From: Ignavibacteriaceae bacterium | Lineage (GTDB): Bacteria; Bacteroidota; Ignavibacteria; Ignavibacteriales; Ignavibacteriaceae | Assembly (NCBI GenBank): GCA_022865965.1 | Contig: JALHTS010000694.1 | Span: 1 to 8,063, forward strand | DNA length: 8,063 bases | Reading direction: 5' to 3' | Shown here: positions 209 through 8,063 of the stretch, piece by piece | Numbering within the stretch: position 1 is the first letter of the stretch | Layout: each line of letters begins with the position of its first letter | The notes under the pieces: generated by a model | Told to the model about the DNA's origin: nothing | What the model saw: only the letters and a program-made list of their open reading frames with translations | Databases searched by the model: none | Made by a program: the position numbers and the translations under genes

Positions 209-1414
209 TTAACTCCCTCCTAATTTTCTTAACGATTCTATATCCTTCAACCCATTACCTGTAATTAACAATAGATTTTTATCGGATAAATTGAGTTTAT
301 CTGCAGCTAATAGTTTTTTATAAGCTGCATAAACTGAAGCAGAAGAAGGTTCGCACAAAATTCCTGTTTGTTTAATAAATTCTTTTTGTGCGGATAAAAT
401 TTCTTCATCAGTTACTGCTATCGCAAAACCGTTACTTTCTTTAACCGCTTTCGCAGCCATAAAAAGATTACGCGGCGCACCTGCAGATATGCTGTCGGCA
501 ATTGTGTCAGCAGGTTTATATTCAAATTTACTCGTGTTTAAATATCTAAATAAAGCATCACTCCCTGTTGATTGGACAGCAATTAATTTTGGAAGTTTAT
601 CAATCCAATTAAGTGCGAGTAATTCCTTAAATCCTTTATAAATACCTGATATAATTACACCATCTCCAACCGGAACAAAAATTACATCCGGTATTTTTCC
701 CTGCGATGAAATAAATATATCATACGCAGCTGATTTTTTTCCTTCAATAGTCAGTGGATTGTAAGCGGTGTTTCTATTGTACCAATTATTTTTTTTAGAT
801 TCTTCAAGACAAATATCGAATGCTTTGTCATAATCACCATCAACAACATTGAGCTCTGCACCGTAAGCTTCTATTTGTATTCGCTTTGCCTCAGGAATGT
901 TCTTGGGCACATAAATTATTGCTTTTAATCCGAGTCGTGCACAAATACCTGCAAGTGAAGATCCCGCATTACCGGTTGATGCTGCGGCTATTTCATTAAT
1001 CCCGAGTTGTAAAGCTTTTAATGCTACTAACGATGAGGCTCTATCTTTATAAGAAAGAGTTGGATTTCGTGTATCATCTAAAATCCAGAAGTCTTTTTTG
1101 TCAACAGAGTATTTTAAAAGTTGATCAGAAGGCAACGCAAGTTTGATTAATTGATCATCTCTGTAGTTTTGAAAATTGATAGGCCACAGATCAGGATACA
1201 GCCAGAATTTCCCCGGAGTCAACTTAAGAAAATCTTCTCTCGATAATTTCTTTTTTAAACTTTCATAATCATAAACGATTTCAAGAACTCCTTCAAGCGG
1301 TTTATTTCTTTCCGCTTTCCCGCACTTTGGACATAAATAAATAAAATTCTGTTCAATTTCACTTACACCAAATTCCGAATAGCAATTTGAGCAGATGTAA
1401 AAATATGATTTCAT
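209..1414 (-). CDS. Threonine-synthase-like PLP enzyme with N-terminal zinc ribbon
   Basis: This 401-aa protein is a fold-type II PLP enzyme. Residues 8-31 form a zinc ribbon (C8xxC11 and C28xxC31), as in archaeal-type threonine synthases. The Schiff-base lysine should be K123 in SYKDRAS. The asparagine loop is STGNAGSS (146-153), a glycine-rich stretch PVGDGVIISG covers 248-257, and CEPSSAS (354-360) and TGNG (385-388) are typical of ThrC. Threonine synthase converts O-phosphohomoserine to threonine and phosphate. No other threonine biosynthesis gene is near; the gene is last in a ygeY/ygeW-type operon. It may therefore be a paralogue acting on another amino acid, such as 2,3-diaminopropionate, which is inference from context only. 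The ATG start at 1414 fits the zinc ribbon. No Shine-Dalgarno sequence precedes it, and a repeat element ends about 15 bases upstream. Confidence 0.85.
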   Translation of the reverse strand: MKSYFYICSNCYSEFGVSEIEQNFIYLCPKCGKAERNKPLEGVLEIVYDYESLKKKLSREDFLKLTPGKFWLYPDLWPINFQNYRDDQLIKLALPSDQLLKYSVDKKDFWILDDTRNPTLSYKDRASSLVALKALQLGINEIAAASTGNAGSSLAGICARLGLKAIIYVPKNIPEAKRIQIEAYGAELNVVDGDYDKAFDICLEESKKNNWYNRNTAYNPLTIEGKKSAAYDIFISSQGKIPDVIFVPVGDGVIISGIYKGFKELLALNWIDKLPKLIAVQSTGSDALFRYLNTSKFEYKPADTIADSISAGAPRNLFMAAKAVKESNGFAIAVTDEEILSAQKEFIKQTGILCEPSSASVYAAYKKLLAADKLNLSDKNLLLITGNGLKDIESLRKLGGS

Positions 1415-1428
1415 AAAATTTAAAGTTT

Positions 1429-1536
1429 AATGGAACACGGATAACACGGACCTGCCTTTGCCGCAGGCAGGTTCAACTGATGCTCACGGATTAAATCAGT
1501 GATAATCCGTTCAATCTGCGTCATCTGTGTTCTATT
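1429..1536. repeat. Geneless palindromic element related to the GxxExxY element
   Basis: This 108-bp element fills the gap between ygeW and the threonine-synthase-like gene. Its left end (from TGGAACACGG at 1431) pairs with its right end (CTGTGTTCTA, ending 1534). If the 21-bp block 1451-1471 is removed, the two halves match at 37 of 48 compared positions, so the element is one long imperfect palindrome centred near 1493. Many mismatches are transitions that would form G-U pairs in RNA. Bases 1430-1450 are identical to 2569-2589 at the left end of the GxxExxY-bearing element, and both right ends read AATAGAACAC on the minus strand. It looks like a non-autonomous or deleted relative. No convincing target duplication flanks it. 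Confidence 0.8.
1451..1471. repeat. 21-bp GC-rich hairpin nested in the left arm of the palindrome
   Basis: CCTGCCT at 1451-1457 pairs with AGGCAGG at 1465-1471 around a 7-base loop. It is much richer in G+C than its surroundings. Its boundaries are exact: deleting it brings the two halves of the surrounding palindrome into register. It is therefore best read as a later insertion into the older repeat. Confidence 0.7.
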
Positions 1537-1542
1537 CATTCT

Positions 1543-2553
1543 TCACATTGTTAAAGACATAATAGCTTTTGCAGTATGCAGCCTGTTTTCTGCTTCATCA
1601 AAAACAATCGAAATATTTTCATTGTCTAAAATCTCATCAGTTACTTCGTGACCTCTATCTGCAGGAAGAGCGTGCATCAGTTTAACATTTTTATCAGCGA
1701 GTTTTATTTTATGTTCGTCGCAAATCCAAGACTTATATTTTTCCAATTTAGATTTCATTTCTTTTTTACATTCGTTTTCATTATTCAAATAATCCGGCAC
1801 ACTATAAGCACCAAAGCCGCCCCAGTTTTTGGGAATTACAATATGAGCACCTTCAAAAGCTTCATCCATGTTATTAGTAAATTTAATACTTCCTCCTCCG
1901 GTTGCTGCATTTTGTTTTGCTTTATCAACAATGTTTTTACTTAGCGGGAATTCTTTTGGGTGCGCAACCGTTACATCAATTCCATAACGAGGGAAAAGTA
2001 ATATTTGTGTCTGCGGAACAGACAGTGGTTTAGAATGAGTGTCAGCATAAGCCCACGAAACTGTTACTTTTAATCCTTTAGGATTTTTATCAAAGTGTTC
2101 AAAGATTGTCATTAGATCAGCCAGGCCTTGAAAAGGATGATAAACATCATCCTGTAAAGACATAACAGGTCGTTTTGAATATTTTGCCATCTCTTTTAAA
2201 TAATCATTTCCTATTCCATAAAAACAATTTCTTGAAGCGATACCGTGTCCCATTCGAGAAAGAATAATTGCTGTATCTTTTGCAGATTCTCCGTGTGACA
2301 ACTGCATTTTATCAGCGGTCAAATCGTGTGCATGCCCACCAAGCTGTGTCATTCCCGCTTCCATTGAATTTCTTGTTCGTGTTGATTGCTCGAAAAATAT
2401 CATGAATAAAGTTTTATGTGGTAGATCCAAATGCGGGACTTCGTTTTTAAACTGATCTTTTAATTCAAATGATTTGTTGAATACAATATCTAGTTCTTCT
2501 TTTTTCCAGTCATCGCAAGTTAGAAAGTGCCTGCCTTTAAATTTGTTAATCAT
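1543..2553 (-). CDS. ygeW: YgeW-type knotted carbamoyltransferase
   Basis: The product is a 336-aa aspartate/ornithine carbamoyltransferase-fold protein. It shows the carbamoyl phosphate motif STRTR (57-61), HPFQ (139-142), and the loop KPLSVPQ (175-181) inside a WAY...KPLSVPQ context characteristic of E. coli YgeW. HALP (294-297) replaces the usual HCLP. The C-terminus carries AENRLH (321-326), which is closer to N-acetylornithine carbamoyltransferases than to E. coli YgeW, and the length also fits that group rather than the roughly 396-aa E. coli protein. It probably moves a carbamoyl group between a ureido intermediate and phosphate, giving carbamoyl phosphate; the substrate is inferred from the operon. 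The start chosen is the ATG at 2553, preceded by AGGAG with a 5-nt spacer. A GTG at 2586 in frame lies inside the adjacent repeat and would add 11 repeat-derived residues. Confidence 0.88.
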   Translation of the reverse strand: MINKFKGRHFLTCDDWKKEELDIVFNKSFELKDQFKNEVPHLDLPHKTLFMIFFEQSTRTRNSMEAGMTQLGGHAHDLTADKMQLSHGESAKDTAIILSRMGHGIASRNCFYGIGNDYLKEMAKYSKRPVMSLQDDVYHPFQGLADLMTIFEHFDKNPKGLKVTVSWAYADTHSKPLSVPQTQILLFPRYGIDVTVAHPKEFPLSKNIVDKAKQNAATGGGSIKFTNNMDEAFEGAHIVIPKNWGGFGAYSVPDYLNNENECKKEMKSKLEKYKSWICDEHKIKLADKNVKLMHALPADRGHEVTDEILDNENISIVFDEAENRLHTAKAIMSLTM

Positions 2554-2557
2554 ACAT

Positions 2558-2563
2558 TCTCCT
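2558..2563 (-). promoter_or_regulatory. Ribosome binding site of ygeW
   Basis: The minus strand reads AGGAGA here, ahead of the ATG at 2551-2553 (AGGAG plus 5 nt). It is the clearest Shine-Dalgarno sequence in the window and decides the ygeW start. It lies just outside the left end of the GxxExxY element, so the insertion left it intact. Confidence 0.75.
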
Positions 2564-2569
2564 ATTTTA

Positions 2570-3042
2570 TGGAACACGGATAACACGGATCAAACAGATT
2601 ATCAGGGATTTAATCCGGTTTTTCGGTCATTCGTAAAATTTTTCTTTTTATTTCCGGTTTCTTACCAAAATTTAGTAGTAACCCAACTTCTATATTAGTT
2701 GCTTTTAAATAATTTATTAATTGAAATTCATGCTCTTCACAAATTGCTTCTGCAGCTTTTAGTTCAATAATAATTTTATCCTCAACAATAATGTCTGCAT
2801 AATAATCACCAATAAGAATATCTTTATAAAAAACCTCTATTTTCTTTTGTCTTTCACAGTTCAATCCGAAAATTTTCAACTCATTGTATAATGCGTTTTC
2901 ATATACTTTCTCTAAAAACCCATAACCAAGTATATTATAAACTTCGTAAAAACATTTAATAATTTTATCAGATAAATCTTGATATAACATTTTAATTATA
3001 ATCTGTGATTATCCTCTAAATCTGTGTGATCCGTGTTCTATT
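2570..3042. mobile_element. GxxExxY-bearing element with terminal inverted repeats
   Basis: The left end (2570 to about 2615, beginning TGGAACACGGATAACACGG) and the right end (about 2998-3042) are imperfect inverted copies of one another. On the minus strand the right end begins AATAGAACACGG. The similarity runs for about 45 bp and covers the last codons of the enclosed gene. TATTTTA occurs directly outside each end (2563-2569 and 3043-3049), a candidate 7-bp target duplication, though it is AT-rich and could be chance. The element sits exactly between the ygeY stop codon and the ygeW ribosome binding site. Its only gene is a small nuclease-fold protein; no transposase is present, so the way it moves is unknown. 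Confidence 0.7.
2610..2990 (-). CDS. GxxExxY family protein (PD-(D/E)XK nuclease fold)
   Basis: This 126-aa protein has the family signature GFLEKVY (24-30, with G24, E27 and Y30). A nuclease-like core follows: D66 in YADIIVEDK, then E76 and K78 in IIELKA, matching the D...ExK pattern. HEFQLINYLK (87-96) adds the usual conserved Q90, and LLLNFG (104-109) follows, as in other members. All candidate catalytic residues are present, so the protein is probably active or recently so. The family's biological role is not established. The gene lies inside a pair of inverted repeats, and its last codons and stop overlap the left repeat. The ATG at 2990 has no Shine-Dalgarno sequence, only an A/T-rich leader. 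It is in the operon's orientation and would be co-transcribed, but it has no evident link to the surrounding catabolic genes. Confidence 0.88.
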   Translation of the reverse strand: MLYQDLSDKIIKCFYEVYNILGYGFLEKVYENALYNELKIFGLNCERQKKIEVFYKDILIGDYYADIIVEDKIIIELKAAEAICEEHEFQLINYLKATNIEVGLLLNFGKKPEIKRKILRMTEKPD

Positions 3043-3046
3043 TATT

Positions 3047-4231
3047 TTAATAATTAACTACAAACATTGCATAAAATGCTGATGCTTTTACCAGATGATC
3101 AATAGAAACTTTTTCATTTGGTGCATGCGCCATTTCTTCTTTGCCAGGACCGAATCCAATAACAGGAATTTTATGAATACCGTTTATAGTCACTCCGTTT
3201 GTAGAGAATGTCCACTTGTCAACTTTTGGTTTTTTATTAAATAGATCATTAAAAGTTTTTACTCCGCTTTTAATTACCTGATGATCTTCTTCAATTTTCC
3301 AGGTGGGATAATATTTTTCCATACCATATTTTAATCCTGTGAAGGAAGTCTTTTCATAATTAAGCAGCTCGACTTTTGCATTCATTCCCTTAACAATTTC
3401 TTTTACTTGATTTAGGGCCAGCTCCTTATCTTCACCCCAGGTTAATCTTCTATCGAGATGAATTTTTGCGAAATCCGAAACAGCACACAACGATGGACTC
3501 GATGAAACAAATTCTGTAACCGTAACTGATCCCTTTCCAAGAAATGAATCAACGGCAAGTCTTTCGTTTAACTTTTCTATTTCAAGCGCAGCCTTCGAAG
3601 CCATATATATTGCATTCTTTCCTCTTTCAGGAGCTGAGCTGTGCGAAGATAAACCATGAAATGAAACTTCAATTTCCATTCTGCCGCGATGCCCACGATA
3701 AATATTTAAATTTGTCGGTTCTGTCACAATTACACAATCCGGTTTTATTTTATCTTCTTCAATAATGTAATTCCAGCAGAGACCATCGCAATCTTCTTCC
3801 ATAACTGTACCTGTAAAATAGACTGTCACATCATCAGGCAATCCAATTTCTTTTAAAATTCTTCCTGCTGTAACAAAAGCTGCCGGTCCACCCGACTGAT
3901 CAACTGATCCTCTACCCAAAACAAAACCATCTTTAATTTCCCCGCTTAATGGATGAAAATCCCAGTCTTCAGCATTGCCTAAATCAACTGTATCGATATG
4001 ACCATCGATAGCAATTACTTTTTTTCCGTTTCCAATTCTGCCAATAACATTTCCAAGTCCATCTATCTTCGCTTCATCAAATCCTGCCTCTTCCATCATT
4101 TGTTTAAGTGCTTTAGCAACACCTTCTTCTTCTCCGCTAAGTGATTTTATTTTTATAAGTTTAGAAAGATTATTTGCTGTATAGTCTGAATATTCTTCAG
4201 CTTTGGCTAATATTTTTTCTGCAAGGCTCAT
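3047..4231 (-). CDS. ygeY: YgeY family M20 metallohydrolase
   Basis: This 394-aa cytoplasmic M20-type zinc hydrolase is close in length to E. coli YgeY. Metal and catalytic residues are visible: GHIDTVD gives H78 and D80, GRGSVDQSGG (106-115) gives D111, EED gives the catalytic pair E145/E146, EPT gives E171, and MAHAPNE gives H369. A dimerisation domain lies between roughly residues 180 and 290. M20 enzymes hydrolyse peptide, N-acyl or carbamoyl amide bonds. Together with ssnA, hyuA and ygeW, this one probably hydrolyses a linear ureido or amide intermediate of purine breakdown; the exact substrate is not readable from sequence. The ATG at 4231 is preceded by AAGGA with a 5-nt gap. The gene follows ssnA by 22 nt. 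Its TAA stop (3047-3049) abuts the GxxExxY element and is part of the candidate target duplication. Confidence 0.9.
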   Translation of the reverse strand: MSLAEKILAKAEEYSDYTANNLSKLIKIKSLSGEEEGVAKALKQMMEEAGFDEAKIDGLGNVIGRIGNGKKVIAIDGHIDTVDLGNAEDWDFHPLSGEIKDGFVLGRGSVDQSGGPAAFVTAGRILKEIGLPDDVTVYFTGTVMEEDCDGLCWNYIIEEDKIKPDCVIVTEPTNLNIYRGHRGRMEIEVSFHGLSSHSSAPERGKNAIYMASKAALEIEKLNERLAVDSFLGKGSVTVTEFVSSSPSLCAVSDFAKIHLDRRLTWGEDKELALNQVKEIVKGMNAKVELLNYEKTSFTGLKYGMEKYYPTWKIEEDHQVIKSGVKTFNDLFNKKPKVDKWTFSTNGVTINGIHKIPVIGFGPGKEEMAHAPNEKVSIDHLVKASAFYAMFVVNY

Positions 4232-4236
4232 TGTTA

Positions 4237-4241
4237 TCCTT
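4237..4241 (-). promoter_or_regulatory. Ribosome binding site of ygeY
   Basis: The minus strand reads AAGGA, 5 nt before the ATG at 4229-4231. It lies in the 22-nt gap after ssnA and supports independent translation initiation within one transcript. Confidence 0.6.
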
Positions 4242-4253
4242 CAATTATCGGTT

Positions 4254-5588
4254 TTATAGTGCATTGAATTTATTATATAGTTTTCTTCCCTGAACAGAAA
4301 TATTTTTGTTATAGGAAGAATCATCAAATGTAAAATTAAATTCTCTCATTAGTGTATTACCATTATGAACAACACTGTGGATTGGTCTTTCTAATATTCC
4401 ATAAATAAGATGGCCAAAGAAATTATCTTTGTTAATTGGAGTAGGTGAAATGTAATCCCAAATGATAACGTCAGCACGATCGCCATTTTTTAATGACGAA
4501 AAATCTGGAAAATACTTTTTAACAAAATCTAATTGTCGAAAGTAAATATTTTCAATCAACGCAAAAGATTGTTCAAATGTAAATCCGTTGTTTCTGGTAA
4601 GTAAAAATAATTGGCGCAATGTTTGTCCAGGGTTTGAATGCATTCCATCAGTTCCGGTAAGCAGTGGAATATTCTTTGACATCCTAGAAAAATTCTGAAG
4701 CCCAACGGCATTATTCAAGTTTGAATCCAAGTTCAGAACTACAGAACTGCCGCTCTCTTCCAATATATTAAAATCGTCTTCTTTTAAATGAATTCCATGT
4801 GCAAGAATGCTTTTATGATTTAATAATCCGTATTTTTTTAATCGATCCATCGGCTTCAATCCGTACATTTTCAGACTTTGATCTACATCACATTTATCTT
4901 CACATAAGTGAATATGAATTCCACAGTTTAACTTATTGACTATTTCATTTGCTTTATCTAAAGTTTCATCTGAGACTGTAAAAGAAGCATGAAGACCAAG
5001 TATGCCTTTTAAATCCTCATCAAGATTCGATTCCATAAAATTAATATTCTCATTCATTCCACTAAGAGCGAGTTGTTCTCCATTTCTATCAGTTGTTTCA
5101 AAACATAATATTCCTCTGATTCCAATTTCTGTTAAAACATCGGCAATAATGCCCAAACTGCCTTTTGCGGATTTCGGGGATGAGTGATGGTCGAAAATAT
5201 AAGTAACGCCGTTACGAATCGAATCAAGCACAGCTGATTGAGCAGAAGCACGAATCATTTCTTCATCAAGAATTAAATCAAGCTTCCACCATAAATTTTT
5301 CAGAATATTTTCAAAATTATCCATTGGTCCATTAATGGATAACCCTTTTGCTAACCGCGAATAAAAATGATCATGAAAATTGACTAATGGTAAAGTTAGA
5401 ACTCTGCCATTGGCATTAATGATATTGGCATCTGATGGATTTTCAGAAAAATTAAATTCATTAAATGATTTTAATTGTATATCAATAATTTTCCCATCTG
5501 AGACAATTAAATCTCCAAACATTGGATTGACAGCTTTACCATCAATCTGACAAATCCACGCATTAATAATTTTAAATTTTGTGTTCAC
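4254..5588 (-). CDS. ssnA: SsnA family amidohydrolase
   Basis: This 444-aa protein is a metal-dependent amidohydrolase of the chlorohydrolase/cytosine deaminase type. Metal ligands are visible: H72 and H74 in NFHDHFYS, H227 with E230 in HIHLCED, H264 in AHGIHL, and D314 in GTDGM. Stretches recalled from E. coli SsnA are well preserved: LKNLWWKLD (96-104), DHHSSP (133-138), CFETTDRNG (162-170) and SPTP (381-384). Length equals the family norm. E. coli ssnA lies in the ygfK-ssnA-xdhD region, and in proposed anaerobic urate routes the enzyme hydrolyses a purine-derived ring. I recall that assignment; it cannot be read from the sequence. The start is GTG at 5588, with a weak AGAAG-like site upstream; the next in-frame Met (23) would remove the first beta strand. 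It follows the HyuA-like gene by 26 nt. Confidence 0.9.
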   Translation of the reverse strand: MNTKFKIINAWICQIDGKAVNPMFGDLIVSDGKIIDIQLKSFNEFNFSENPSDANIINANGRVLTLPLVNFHDHFYSRLAKGLSINGPMDNFENILKNLWWKLDLILDEEMIRASAQSAVLDSIRNGVTYIFDHHSSPKSAKGSLGIIADVLTEIGIRGILCFETTDRNGEQLALSGMNENINFMESNLDEDLKGILGLHASFTVSDETLDKANEIVNKLNCGIHIHLCEDKCDVDQSLKMYGLKPMDRLKKYGLLNHKSILAHGIHLKEDDFNILEESGSSVVLNLDSNLNNAVGLQNFSRMSKNIPLLTGTDGMHSNPGQTLRQLFLLTRNNGFTFEQSFALIENIYFRQLDFVKKYFPDFSSLKNGDRADVIIWDYISPTPINKDNFFGHLIYGILERPIHSVVHNGNTLMREFNFTFDDSSYNKNISVQGRKLYNKFNAL

Positions 5589-5614
5589 GTTATTCTTCTA
5601 TTAAAAATTAAATT

Positions 5615-7081
5615 TTATACTTTAACAAATTTACCATAGCCGATGGTTTGTCTTGCTCTTCCCTTCCGATTCAAAATTAATTCACCACGCAAAAATGTTT
5701 TTTCCACAACAGAATTAAAAGTAACACCTTCAAAAGGAGTGTACTTACCTTTACTGTGCATTCTTTTTGCTGTTACCTTTTGTTTACTCCACAAATCAAT
5801 AAGAGCTAAATCCGAATCGTATCCTACTTTAAGATGTCCTTTGTTTTGAATATTGAAGTAGTCCGCTACATTTGAAGATAGCAATGCAACTGTATTAGAT
5901 AATGATAATTTATTTTTCTTAAATCCTTCACTAAAAAGAAATGGAACCCGATGTTCAACACCGGGAATTCCGCCGTACACATCCCAAAAGTTTTTTTGTG
6001 ATTTTTCCTTTGCAGGATTACATCCGGCATGGTCTGTAGTTACAAATGATAATGTTCCATCATCCAAGCCATCCCACAATGCTTCTTTATCTTCTTGATT
6101 TTTAACCGGTGGAGCAGTTTTCAGGAATGAAGATATTTTGGAGTTATTAAAATCTTCTTGTGTGAAGTACAAATATTGCGGACAAGTTTCAGCGGTAATA
6201 TTGAATCCACTTTCTCTTGCATCTTTTATTAATTTTAATGCTCTTGCAGAACTCAAATGAACTATATGAATTTTACATTTTGTTTTTTTTGATATCTCAA
6301 TCATTAATTTTACAGCACGGACTTCAGATTCCACATCTCTAGCGTTACAATAATCTTTCCAGCTATTAAGTTCCAATTTTTTAGACAGATTCATTCTCGA
6401 TAAAATCAATTCTTTATCTTCAGCGTGGACTGCCAGAGGCTTTCCAGTTTTCCTTATCCACTTTGCTGTTTGAAGCATTCTTTGTTCATTTAAATCAGTA
6501 AATGTGTTCATTCCTGAAATTAAGTATGCTTTGAATCCCGCAACTCCATTTTGCGCAAGTTCGTAAATCTGTTTTTCAATATTTTTATTTTTATCGAAAT
6601 CATTTCCGCAAACACCGCCCCAAAAACAATAGTCAATCAAGCTTCGTTCCTGGACTGCCTGCATTTTCCTCTTAAGATTAATCTTACTTGTAACCGGAGG
6701 CAAAGATGTGCAAGGCATATCGATTATTGTTGTAACTCCACCGTACGCTGCTGCAGTTGATGCATGTTCAAAATCATCTCTATGTTCATATCCAGGTGTG
6801 TTGAAATGAACGTGTGGATCAATACTCCCGGGCATAAGCAGAAAGTAGGAGCCATCATAAATTTTGTAGTTATTAGAATAATCTAATTGTGGAAATTGCT
6901 GGATAATTTTTGCACGCTTTGATATTGTATTTATTTCATCCCAACTAATTTTTCTTGAACTGCGCGGAACAATTTTATTAATCGTAGTGCTAAAGTGTAT
7001 ATCAATTAATTTAAGATTGTTTCCGCCGGAACTGATAAATACATTTTTGAGAATTTTATTTGGATTAGTCAATCTTAACAA
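5615..7081 (-). CDS. hyuA: Allantoinase/dihydropyrimidinase-type cyclic amidohydrolase (HyuA-like)
   Basis: This 488-aa protein is a cyclic amidohydrolase with all binuclear metal ligands: H90 and H92 in DPHVHFNTPG, the carboxylated lysine K184 in GFKAYL, H219 in VHAED, H275 in IVHLSS, and D350 in TTDHAG. AETCPQYLYF (297-306) and GIPGVEHR (371-378) are further family signatures. HVHFNTPG and GFKAYL are closer to allantoinase (AllB) than to E. coli HyuA, so it may open a hydantoin- or ureido-type ring. The segment before MPG (residues 30-80) is longer than usual. No ATG precedes residue 83, so the start must be non-canonical. TTG at 7081 is used here; TTG at 7072 is an alternative and sits better spaced after AGGA at 7083-7086. 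Only 3 nt separate it from the upstream PLP gene, indicating translational coupling. Confidence 0.85.
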   Translation of the reverse strand: MLRLTNPNKILKNVFISSGGNNLKLIDIHFSTTINKIVPRSSRKISWDEINTISKRAKIIQQFPQLDYSNNYKIYDGSYFLLMPGSIDPHVHFNTPGYEHRDDFEHASTAAAYGGVTTIIDMPCTSLPPVTSKINLKRKMQAVQERSLIDYCFWGGVCGNDFDKNKNIEKQIYELAQNGVAGFKAYLISGMNTFTDLNEQRMLQTAKWIRKTGKPLAVHAEDKELILSRMNLSKKLELNSWKDYCNARDVESEVRAVKLMIEISKKTKCKIHIVHLSSARALKLIKDARESGFNITAETCPQYLYFTQEDFNNSKISSFLKTAPPVKNQEDKEALWDGLDDGTLSFVTTDHAGCNPAKEKSQKNFWDVYGGIPGVEHRVPFLFSEGFKKNKLSLSNTVALLSSNVADYFNIQNKGHLKVGYDSDLALIDLWSKQKVTAKRMHSKGKYTPFEGVTFNSVVEKTFLRGELILNRKGRARQTIGYGKFVKV

Positions 7082-7084
7082 ATC

Positions 7085-8063
7085 CTAAATTTTTAAACCG
7101 ACTTGTTTATTAAACTCATTTATCAATTTATCCCATTCCGGAACAGTTGCAAATCTTTCTTTCCAATAATTTTCATCGTACCATTGAGCATTTAATTCTT
7201 CCACACTTTTACCTTGCTGTTCAATCCAGGTAAAATACTTCAAATTATGAATTGATTTTTTATCATAGTAGCTGAGTTCTTTCATATAATCTATGCCTTG
7301 ATGCTTTAAAATACTCGTCCAATCAACTTCGGCTTTTGTTTCTGAATAATCTCCCCAATTATTATTCATTTCAATCAGCCGAGAATTATATAGATCGACT
7401 GAATCTGTAAATACAGTGAAGATTACATCATTTTCAGAAAGCTCAAAATATTTTGCTGTTTTTACTGCGCTTAACAAATTACAAATTGAAGAAATGCCTA
7501 AGTATGAAAGTTTATTAACAGTTTCCTGATCAACACCTTCTTTTACCAACCAGTTTTTTCCCGAATCCTCATTAAACAATCTTAAAATTCTTAGAGTTTG
7601 TTCATCATCAATAGCTGTTACTACATCAGTATTTTTTACATTGTGTATCCATGGAACATGTTTGTCTCCAATACCTTCGATTCTATGACCGCCATATCCA
7701 TTGAATAAAAGAGTAGGACATTGTAATGCTTCTGTGCATGTAATTTTCATAGACGGAAATTTTTGTTTTAAGTAATCTCCTGCTGCCAATGTTCCTGCTG
7801 AACCGGTTGCGCTAACATACCAGCTTAATCTCTGATCATCTTTTTTAATTTTTTGAAAAAGAGTTTCAATCGTAGAGCCTGTAATTTCATAATGCCAAAT
7901 GGCATTACCAAACTGATCAAATTGATTAAGAATTATATACTCATCACTCTCTGCTTCTAATTCATGACATTTATCATAAATTTCTTTCACATTACTTTCA
8001 CAACCGTAAGTGGCAAAAACTTCAGCACCTATTTCCCTCAGCCAGTCAAATCTTTCTTTACTC
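7085..8063 (-). CDS. Fold-type II PLP-dependent enzyme, cysteine synthase-related (5' end outside the window)
   Basis: The frame is open past the window edge, so the N-terminus is missing. At least about 100 residues are absent, including the PLP-binding lysine and asparagine loop. A GTG at 7990 is not the real start, because coding continues upstream (FDWLREIGAEVFATYGCESN). The glycine-rich phosphate-binding loop ATGSAGTLAAG lies near 7778-7810, and EGIGDKHVPWIHN near 7640-7680 resembles the region that follows it in cysteine synthases. The end of the PLP domain reads FTVFTDSVDLYNSRL (near 7376-7420). About 96 more residues follow, rich in W, Y and charged residues, which standard O-acetylserine sulfhydrylases lack. 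I believe this is the family annotated only as a PLP-dependent protein beta subunit. In this operon it may act as a lyase on a diamino or ureido amino acid, in the position YgeX holds in E. coli. That is inference. Confidence 0.8.
   Translation of the reverse strand, partial: SKERFDWLREIGAEVFATYGCESNVKEIYDKCHELEAESDEYIILNQFDQFGNAIWHYEITGSTIETLFQKIKKDDQRLSWYVSATGSAGTLAAGDYLKQKFPSMKITCTEALQCPTLLFNGYGGHRIEGIGDKHVPWIHNVKNTDVVTAIDDEQTLRILRLFNEDSGKNWLVKEGVDQETVNKLSYLGISSICNLLSAVKTAKYFELSENDVIFTVFTDSVDLYNSRLIEMNNNWGDYSETKAEVDWTSILKHQGIDYMKELSYYDKKSIHNLKYFTWIEQQGKSVEELNAQWYDENYWKERFATVPEWDKLINEFNKQVGLKI

What the first reader, a model, noticed from the sequence alone, without database searches (positions are those of the whole stretch)
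2563..3049. In silico excision of the GxxExxY element restores a perfect ygeY-ygeW junction
TATTTTA flanks both ends of the element. Removing the element and one copy leaves, on the minus strand, the ygeY TAA followed by 13 nt (AATAGGAGAATGT) and then the ygeW ATG, with a well-spaced GGAG. This is what an uninterrupted operon should look like, and it implies a clean insertion with a 7-bp target duplication.
Basis: seen in the sequence. Interest (0 to 1): 0.75.

Follow-up and report, generated by a model that had tools for sequence, protein, structure and literature searches.

The report
Palindromic nuclease element between operon genes
A 473-base piece of DNA with mirror-image ends and a predicted DNA-cutting enzyme gene sits between two genes of one operon where many related bacteria have only a short gap; its kin recur in many bacteria together with enzyme-less copies, so it is likely a little-studied kind of selfish element, but the 7-base duplication seen here is not a rule of the family.

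Summary
The insertion reading holds: of 50 junctions with both genes, 19 have gaps of only 14-44 nt and 10 (window included) carry a GxxExxY gene. A 7-bp target duplication as the family rule does not hold: eight other full elements testable at this junction share 2-5 bp, and 68 elements show no fixed length, although 7 of 68 have a 7-bp match near the ends where 1.6 are expected.

The thing is larger than the finding: a PD-(D/E)XK nuclease gene in the loop of a palindrome of ~9-nt words, with gene-less copies elsewhere, one at 1430-1535. End words co-vary with the nuclease's ancestry; the end pattern has 0-2 hits in each of 20 relatives without the gene, median 9 in 77 with it; the gene is under purifying selection at one Flavobacterium site. 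It works most like a REPIN/RAYT pair built on another nuclease. Cutting and mobility are inferred. TIGR02436 genes often have the same architecture.

The parts
2569..3041 (-). Full element, 473 bp, from terminal AT to terminal AT (AT-RGAAC ... GTTCY-AT); gene orientation is minus
   Evidence: Sequence; termini from 68 elements
2610..2990 (-). GxxExxY gene, 126 aa, predicted PD-(D/E)XK nuclease; its last residues depart from those of relatives
   Evidence: TIGR04256 140 bits (cut-off 35); PF13366 146.2 bits (cut-off 22); alignment of 30
2991..3041 (-). 5' arm in gene orientation: repeated ~9-nt words, ATAGAACACGGAT CACACAGAT TTAGAGGAT AATCACAGAT
   Evidence: Sequence
2569..2612 (-). 3' arm in gene orientation: inverted words ending in GATCCGTGTTATCCGTGTTCCAT
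   Evidence: Sequence
2563..2569 (.). TATTTTA, first copy of the proposed 7-bp duplication; overlaps the terminal A of the element
3043..3049 (.). TATTTTA, second copy; overlaps the ygeY stop codon
1430..1535 (.). Gene-less copy of the palindrome, 106 bp, with a further small palindrome (CCTGCC...GGCAGG) inside; shares 21 identical bases with the full element (1430-1450 = 2569-2589)
   Evidence: RNA fold z -5.16 for 1430-1538
1543..2553 (-).
   Evidence: PF02729 and PF00185; below the YgeW cut-off
3047..4231 (-). ygeY-type hydrolase upstream of the element
   Evidence: TIGR03526 519.3 bits, cut-off 321.5

Best explanation
The element is a palindrome of repeated ~9-nt words with a GxxExxY gene in its loop, lying in an intercistronic gap, and it likely works as the nuclease-bearing member of a REPIN/RAYT-like pair in which the predicted PD-(D/E)XK nuclease would recognise the word-repeat ends and let the palindrome, with or without the gene, spread or persist. 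Shown: the architecture and its recurrence; gap-only, gene-bearing and gene-less states of one junction; co-variation of end words with the nuclease's ancestry; co-occurrence of end motifs with the gene; purifying selection on the gene at one Flavobacterium site. Inferred: that the nuclease cuts DNA, that it acts on these ends, and that this drives mobility or homing. The gene-bearing form appears to be inherited mostly in place, each copy in a genome being distinctive. It lies sense between co-directional genes and may use the operon's transcription. Gene-less copies can arise by internal deletion (one case seen, L230) and are the numerous form.
For: Inverted ends: 46 of 77 loci at score 30 or more against 0 of 65 control pieces, and 18 of 33 loci of the second protein clade against 0 of 32. 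End motif in 64 of 88 clade-A but 3 of 32 clade-B loci (Fisher 3.8e-10); protein distance tracks end-word distance, r 0.49 against 0.06 for control pieces. End pattern: 1047 hits against 4 for the backward control in 97 genomes; 0-2 per genome in 20 without GxxExxY, median 9 in 77 with it; 5 of 7 genera that hold both states go the same way, 2 tie. Junction states. dN/dS 0.071. Internal-deletion derivative L230. Predicted nuclease fold with E27, D66 and K78 invariant and E76 nearly so. Highest same-genome identity between full copies 74.5% among the 24 loci compared, like the single-copy, distinctive RAYTs of PMC3116915 (passage).
Against: No transposition or cutting was observed. Genomes with only other-clade GxxExxY still have up to 66 end-pattern hits (median 5), so nuclease and end word do not match one to one. 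G069, with 181 hits, owes many of the copies read to another element that carries them. Sense orientation is no better than for ordinary small ORFs (90:1 against 36:1). Within clade A the end-word correlation (0.36) is only moderately above its control (0.26). The co-occurrence test is not corrected for phylogeny. Low dN/dS would also fit a host-useful gene.
Confidence: 0.5

Rival explanations
1. Homing: the nuclease cuts the empty junction of a relative and the break is repaired from the occupied copy, so that the element re-enters the same intercistronic gaps.
For: The same junction holds elements of both protein clades (L105 is clade B), and the tree needs 6 label changes for 11 junction rows, starred branches forcing 2; no fixed duplication.
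Against: Dispersed gene-less copies and different sites need more than homing; one clade for all 11 rows is not rejected (AU p 0.103); common inheritance plus loss explains part of the pattern.
Confidence: 0.2
2. The gene is a host gene or passenger with a cellular role, and the flanking palindromes are independent intercistronic repeats.
For: Purifying selection; sense orientation like ordinary small genes; same-site inheritance in Flavobacterium.
Against: End words follow the protein's ancestry but pieces 770-900 nt away do not; gene-less copies have the same arms; protein relatives lie at many different sites in several phyla.
Confidence: 0.15
3. Ordinary cut-and-paste insertion with a 7-bp target duplication.
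For: The 7-bp repeat and the restored junction; 7 of 68 elements with a match of 7 or more within 4 nt of the ends, 1.6 expected.
Against: Eight other full elements at the junction share 2-5 bp; no excess of any length directly at the ends of 68 elements; copies out of register with the conserved termini; the only gene is not a known transposase type.
Confidence: 0.08
4. An RNA-level element: the arms pair in the operon mRNA and are processed, like intervening sequences of 23S rRNA, which makes the insertion harmless; the protein acts on RNA.
For: Three gene-less copies fold better than shuffles (z -5.16, -2.53, -6.09). TIGR02436 genes show similar arms, and the Coxiella intervening sequence with an S23 ORF is described as a selfish element excised by RNase III (PMC4990558, abstract).
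Against: The predicted fold is nearest to DNA nucleases, and tolerance in mRNA does not explain spread. It is compatible with the best explanation as a second layer.
Confidence: 0.07

Closest known systems
REPIN / RAYT system (PMC3116915; abstract and four passages seen)
   Same: Inverted palindromic repeats outside genes, numerous without the gene and linked to a nuclease gene that is single-copy and distinctive in each genome.
   Different: The nuclease is PD-(D/E)XK, not a REP-associated tyrosine transposase; arms are four or so ~9-nt words; the gene lies inside the palindrome.
23S rRNA intervening sequence with S23 ORF (PMC4990558; abstract seen)
   Same: A small ORF in an inserted element of similar length (428 nt there) that is called selfish and vertically kept. 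TIGR02436 genes near this genome's kin have word-repeat arms; that TIGR02436 is the S23 family is recalled.
   Different: This element encodes another protein family and lies between protein genes.
PD-(D/E)XK nucleases near the model: SSO0001 (4ic1), lambda exonuclease type, fdxN excision controlling factor XisH type (2okf, 2inb)
Miniature inverted-repeat elements (recalled class)
   Same: Gene-less copies with the ends of a gene-bearing relative.
   Different: No fixed target duplication and no known transposase.

Membership tests
GxxExxY / PDDEXK_3 protein family | Score over the curated cut-offs | tested here: met
   TIGR04256 140 bits (35), PF13366 146.2 bits (22)
GxxExxY / PDDEXK_3 protein family | Conserved acidic and lysine residues of a PD-(D/E)XK site | tested here: met
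   E27, D66, K78 invariant, E76 at least 90% in 61 sequences; that these form the site is inferred
REPIN / RAYT | Nuclease is a REP-associated tyrosine transposase | tested here: not met
   The only family match in Pfam and NCBIfam is PDDEXK_3 / GxxExxY
REPIN / RAYT | Dispersed inverted palindromic copies linked to presence of the nuclease | tested here: met
   not corrected for phylogeny, and not one to one by clade
REPIN / RAYT | Each nuclease gene distinctive within its genome | tested here: met
   Same-genome matches at most 74.5% identical among 24 loci of five genomes; not all copies of those genomes were compared
REPIN / RAYT | Nuclease acts on the palindromes | not testable with these tools
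   Needs biochemistry
Classical insertion sequence | Fixed-length target duplication | tested here: not met
   68 elements; 8 full elements at the junction; a weak excess of 7-bp matches near the ends remains
Classical insertion sequence | Known transposase gene | tested here: not met
   Only GxxExxY inside the element
Homing endonuclease element | Cuts the empty allele and is copied into it | not testable with these tools
   Recurrence at one junction is compatible
23S rRNA intervening sequence | S23 ORF inside a 23S rRNA gene | tested here: not met
   The element encodes GxxExxY and lies between protein genes; no Rfam match in the window
YgeW (TIGR03316) | Score over the curated cut-off | tested here: not met
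   182.7 bits, cut-off 500

The most novel reading that the evidence does not exclude
GxxExxY genes are the engines of a large undescribed class of bacterial selfish elements: palindromes of repeated ~9-nt words settled in intercistronic gaps of conserved operons, moved or kept in place by a lone PD-(D/E)XK nuclease whose word specificity has diversified together with its end repeats. A second, unrelated small protein family (TIGR02436) uses the same palindromic chassis and settles in the same kind of gaps.
Probability: 0.35. Interest if true: 0.9.

Novelty: new variant of a known kind. Interest (0 to 1): 0.72.

Why it matters
GxxExxY proteins are very common (one protein search filled its list of 7,998 candidates, all significant) and are named only for a motif. 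If they are the cognate nucleases of word-repeat palindromes, many genes of unknown role and a widespread class of intergenic repeats get one explanation, and a nuclease-repeat partnership like RAYT-REPIN would have arisen independently on another nuclease fold. End words that diverge with the protein would offer a natural series for studying how a small PD-(D/E)XK enzyme changes its target.

Tried and rejected
A universal target duplication was tested at the anchored ends of 68 elements, with 0, 2 or 3 terminal bases removed and offsets 0-3; no length stood out directly at the ends (first try on 30 full elements). In these tests the longest matches at zero offset come from arrays (L045, L052, by their printed flanks), not from the window. 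At offsets up to 4, 7 of 68 reach 7 bp or more against 1.6 expected; I leave this excess unexplained.

G069 looked like a recent burst (181 hits), but many of its copies that I read ride inside another palindromic element with GAGACCTCTGAAAAATT ends. It was set apart but is included.

Sense orientation (90 to 1) first looked like strong evidence; small ORFs of the same loci give 36 to 1, so it does not discriminate.

A single origin of all 11 junction nucleases was tested and not rejected (AU p 0.103, log-likelihood 54.8 lower); a further clade test did not finish.

A strict match of clade-A nuclease and clade-A end words across genomes: only partly borne out.

No Rfam match in the window, no solved relative by sequence, no phage match, 6 plasmid records. 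VIA-align is a second look at Foldseek's list; folds that it does not list are not excluded.

Papers: GxxExxY occurs in 2 papers, passages seen, in passing. PF13366 / TIGR04256 / PDDEXK_3: one paper, listing only. Six repeat words: one unrelated paper, listing only. Wider searches gave nothing to the point in their listings. Subscription journals and preprints are not in that library; 'undescribed' means not found in these searches.

Full report
What is there. The window is contig C541 of a 3.03-Mb assembly in 741 contigs, 95.9% complete with 7.84% contamination. On the minus strand a ygeY-type hydrolase (3047-4231), the GxxExxY ORF (2610-2990) and an aspartate/ornithine carbamoyltransferase-family gene (1543-2553) follow each other. 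The last resembles YgeW but stays below that family's cut-off (182.7 of 500 bits). TATTTTA lies at 2563-2569 and 3043-3049.

Is it an insertion? The carbamoyltransferase was found in 51 of 97 genomes, the window's own included. I read the junction in 50 of them (30 loci from the search, 20 fetched; the 51st, a truncated match in G041, was not fetched) and in two loci, L032 and L090, from the GxxExxY scan. Of these 52, L105 and L135 had no recognisable ygeY end. Of the other 50: 19 have gaps of 14-44 nt; by my reading, 10 have a GxxExxY gene between the two genes (window, L103, L106, L119, L127, L129, L136, L142, L032, L090), 7 have gene-less, half or remodelled ends (L109, L115, L118, L121, L124, L128, L132) and 14 have other sequence. 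Start codons of a few rows are off by some nt because they come from alignment ends. In L119, L128, L136 and L090 the element's own TAG seems to serve as the stop codon of the upstream gene. So absence of the element is common and the insertion reading is sound. The closest relative by this enzyme (L097, 90%) has another 745-nt insert instead.

Is it a 7-bp duplication? Anchored on their ends, 77 elements (36 gene-less, 41 full) were collected from the loci held at that time, G069 left out; 9 with the motif in their flanks were dropped. In the other 68 the bases next to RGAAC are AT (A 62, T 64 of 68) and after GTTCY again AT (A 65, T 56 of 68). Direct repeats at the ends are about as long as in shuffled pairs (mean 1.84 against 1.70, sd 0.075; 4 bp or more in 1 element against 0.84 expected). 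At the window's own junction the eight other full elements with enough flank share 2, 3, 3, 5, 2, 4, 2 and 2 bp within 4 nt of their ends (L103, L106, L119, L127, L136, L142, L032, L090); L129 had 2 nt of flank only. The window's match lies at offsets 3 and 1 and has a chance probability of 2-4%. Against my reading, 7 of 68 elements reach 7 bp or more at offsets up to 4 where about 1.6 are expected; two of them are from one array (L052), others are A-rich. I treat the repeat as real sequence that may or may not be a footprint, and not as a family hallmark.

What the element is. The 126-aa protein matches TIGR04256 and PF13366 far over their cut-offs. E27, D66 and K78 are invariant and E76 nearly so in 61 sequences. 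The model is confident (mean pLDDT 94.6, pTM 0.87) and nearest to SSO0001 and other PD-(D/E)XK nucleases. The gene lies between arms of about four ~9-nt words each. A copy without the gene lies at 1430-1535 in the same operon; it shares 21 identical bases with the full element and folds as RNA with z -5.16. The end of the window's ORF reads RKILRMTEKPD where most of the 29 aligned relatives read RKIFTND, so this copy may be slightly damaged.

Generality. A scan of species genomes kept the best 80 of 578 loci, with record titles from Bacteroidota, Ignavibacteria, Cloacimonadota, Nitrospirae and others. Three lacked flank. Of the other 77, 46 have inverted ends at score 30 or more, against 0 of 65 control pieces, and 55 beat the best of 50 shuffles. 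In 33 loci of the second deep clade (L002-L004, L146-L175; L175 is not on the tree), with words like CACRGAG, CGCAAAG or CACAGATT, it is 18 of 33 against 0 of 32. Clade and words go together: the RGAACRCDGA motif flanks 64 of 88 clade-A and 3 of 32 clade-B genes (Fisher 3.8e-10; L105 left out). Protein distance correlates with end-word distance (r 0.49, 0 of 500 permutations; control pieces 0.06; clade B alone 0.50 against 0.004; clade A alone 0.36 against 0.26, where same-site neighbours may lift the control).

Gene-less copies. In 97 genomes the end pattern has 1047 hits against 4 for the backward control. The 20 genomes without a TIGR04256 match have 0-2 hits; the 77 with one have a median of 9 (Mann-Whitney 3.6e-7, no phylogenetic correction). 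Split with the clade-A profile (the cut between 161 and 118 bits is mine), medians are 12 (38 genomes with clade A), 5 (38 with other GxxExxY only, G069 set apart) and 0 (20 with none). Of 7 genera with both states, 5 go the expected way and 2 tie. Genomes with up to 66 hits but no clade-A gene speak against a strict one-to-one match. Full copies are not recent duplicates: among 24 loci of five genomes (20 fetched, a part of those genomes' copies, and the window genome's four) same-genome matches reach 74.5% at most. One distinctive nuclease gene and many gene-less palindromes is what PMC3116915 describes for RAYT and REPIN (abstract and passages).

History. On a tree of 121 GxxExxY proteins the 11 junction rows need 6 label changes; starred branches force 2, because L105 lies in the other clade. 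The window groups with L103 (SH-aLRT 89.7), and L090 with L068 from another site (92). One clade for all 11 is not rejected by the AU test (p 0.103), so I claim at least two arrivals, not six. At a second junction in Flavobacterium (a glutamate-kinase-like and a carbamoyltransferase-like gene, names recalled, no family scan run), 40 loci were read and L221 and L231 set aside as repeats of L081 and L092; 14 of 38 carry the gene. There dN/dS of GxxExxY is 0.071 (median of 51 pairs, 12 sequences; two with internal stops dropped) against 0.031 and 0.041 for the neighbours. L230 shows an internal deletion that leaves both ends and a remnant of the gene's start. The gene sits between co-directional neighbours in sense 90 times and antisense once among 100 loci with usable neighbours; other small ORFs of such loci give 36 to 1, so this fits operon life and proves nothing more.

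Wider chassis. TIGR02436 genes of relatives also sit in word-repeat palindromes, with other words: 11 of 28 at score 30 or more against 0 of 25 controls, 17 of 28 over the best shuffle (the 30 best loci, 2 without a usable ORF). At the site before ATGGCAGAATATAAAAGACC, L029 has a GxxExxY element and L063 a TIGR02436-like one (the family of the L063 ORF is by recall and by its likeness to these loci, not by a scan).

Verdict. The mechanism is inferred.

Noticed in passing
1430-1535: Gene-less copy of the same palindrome after the carbamoyltransferase gene, itself carrying a smaller palindrome CCTGCC...GGCAGG.
   Followed up: partly
2610-2645: The end of the window's GxxExxY frame (RKILRMTEKPD) departs from most relatives (RKIFTND...), as if the frame had shifted near the 3' arm.
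   Followed up: partly
L243-L272: TIGR02436 genes of relatives lie in palindromes of other repeated words (e.g. GTGATCAGTAATGAGTGATCAG, AAGTATCAAGATATGAG), the same architecture with an unrelated protein.
   Followed up: partly
L176-L205 (G069): Copies of the palindrome ride inside another inverted-repeat element (GAGACCTCTGAAAAATT ends), and a third palindrome (CCCCGTGGAATAAATT...ATTCCACGGGG) is nested in some copies.
   Followed up: no
L206-L242: The Flavobacterium junction is held in other species by three other kinds of palindrome-like intergenic sequence (TTAATCGTTAATTCGGTTAATCG, AATTAGAAAATTAG and CACGAATTCACGAATT types).
   Followed up: no
L014 and L035: At what looks like a leuS-serS junction (names recalled), the window's genome has a gene-less copy and a Melioribacteraceae genome (L035) has a full GxxExxY element.
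   Followed up: no
L097 and L141: Two relatives have the same kind of 745-nt insert with another small ORF (MSQESYEGICCYC...) at the ygeY junction.
   Followed up: no
209-7990: The operon joins a threonine-synthase-like PLP enzyme, the carbamoyltransferase, YgeY, an SsnA-like amidohydrolase, an allantoinase-type enzyme and a PLP-fold protein, which looks like a purine or ureide breakdown cluster.
   Followed up: no
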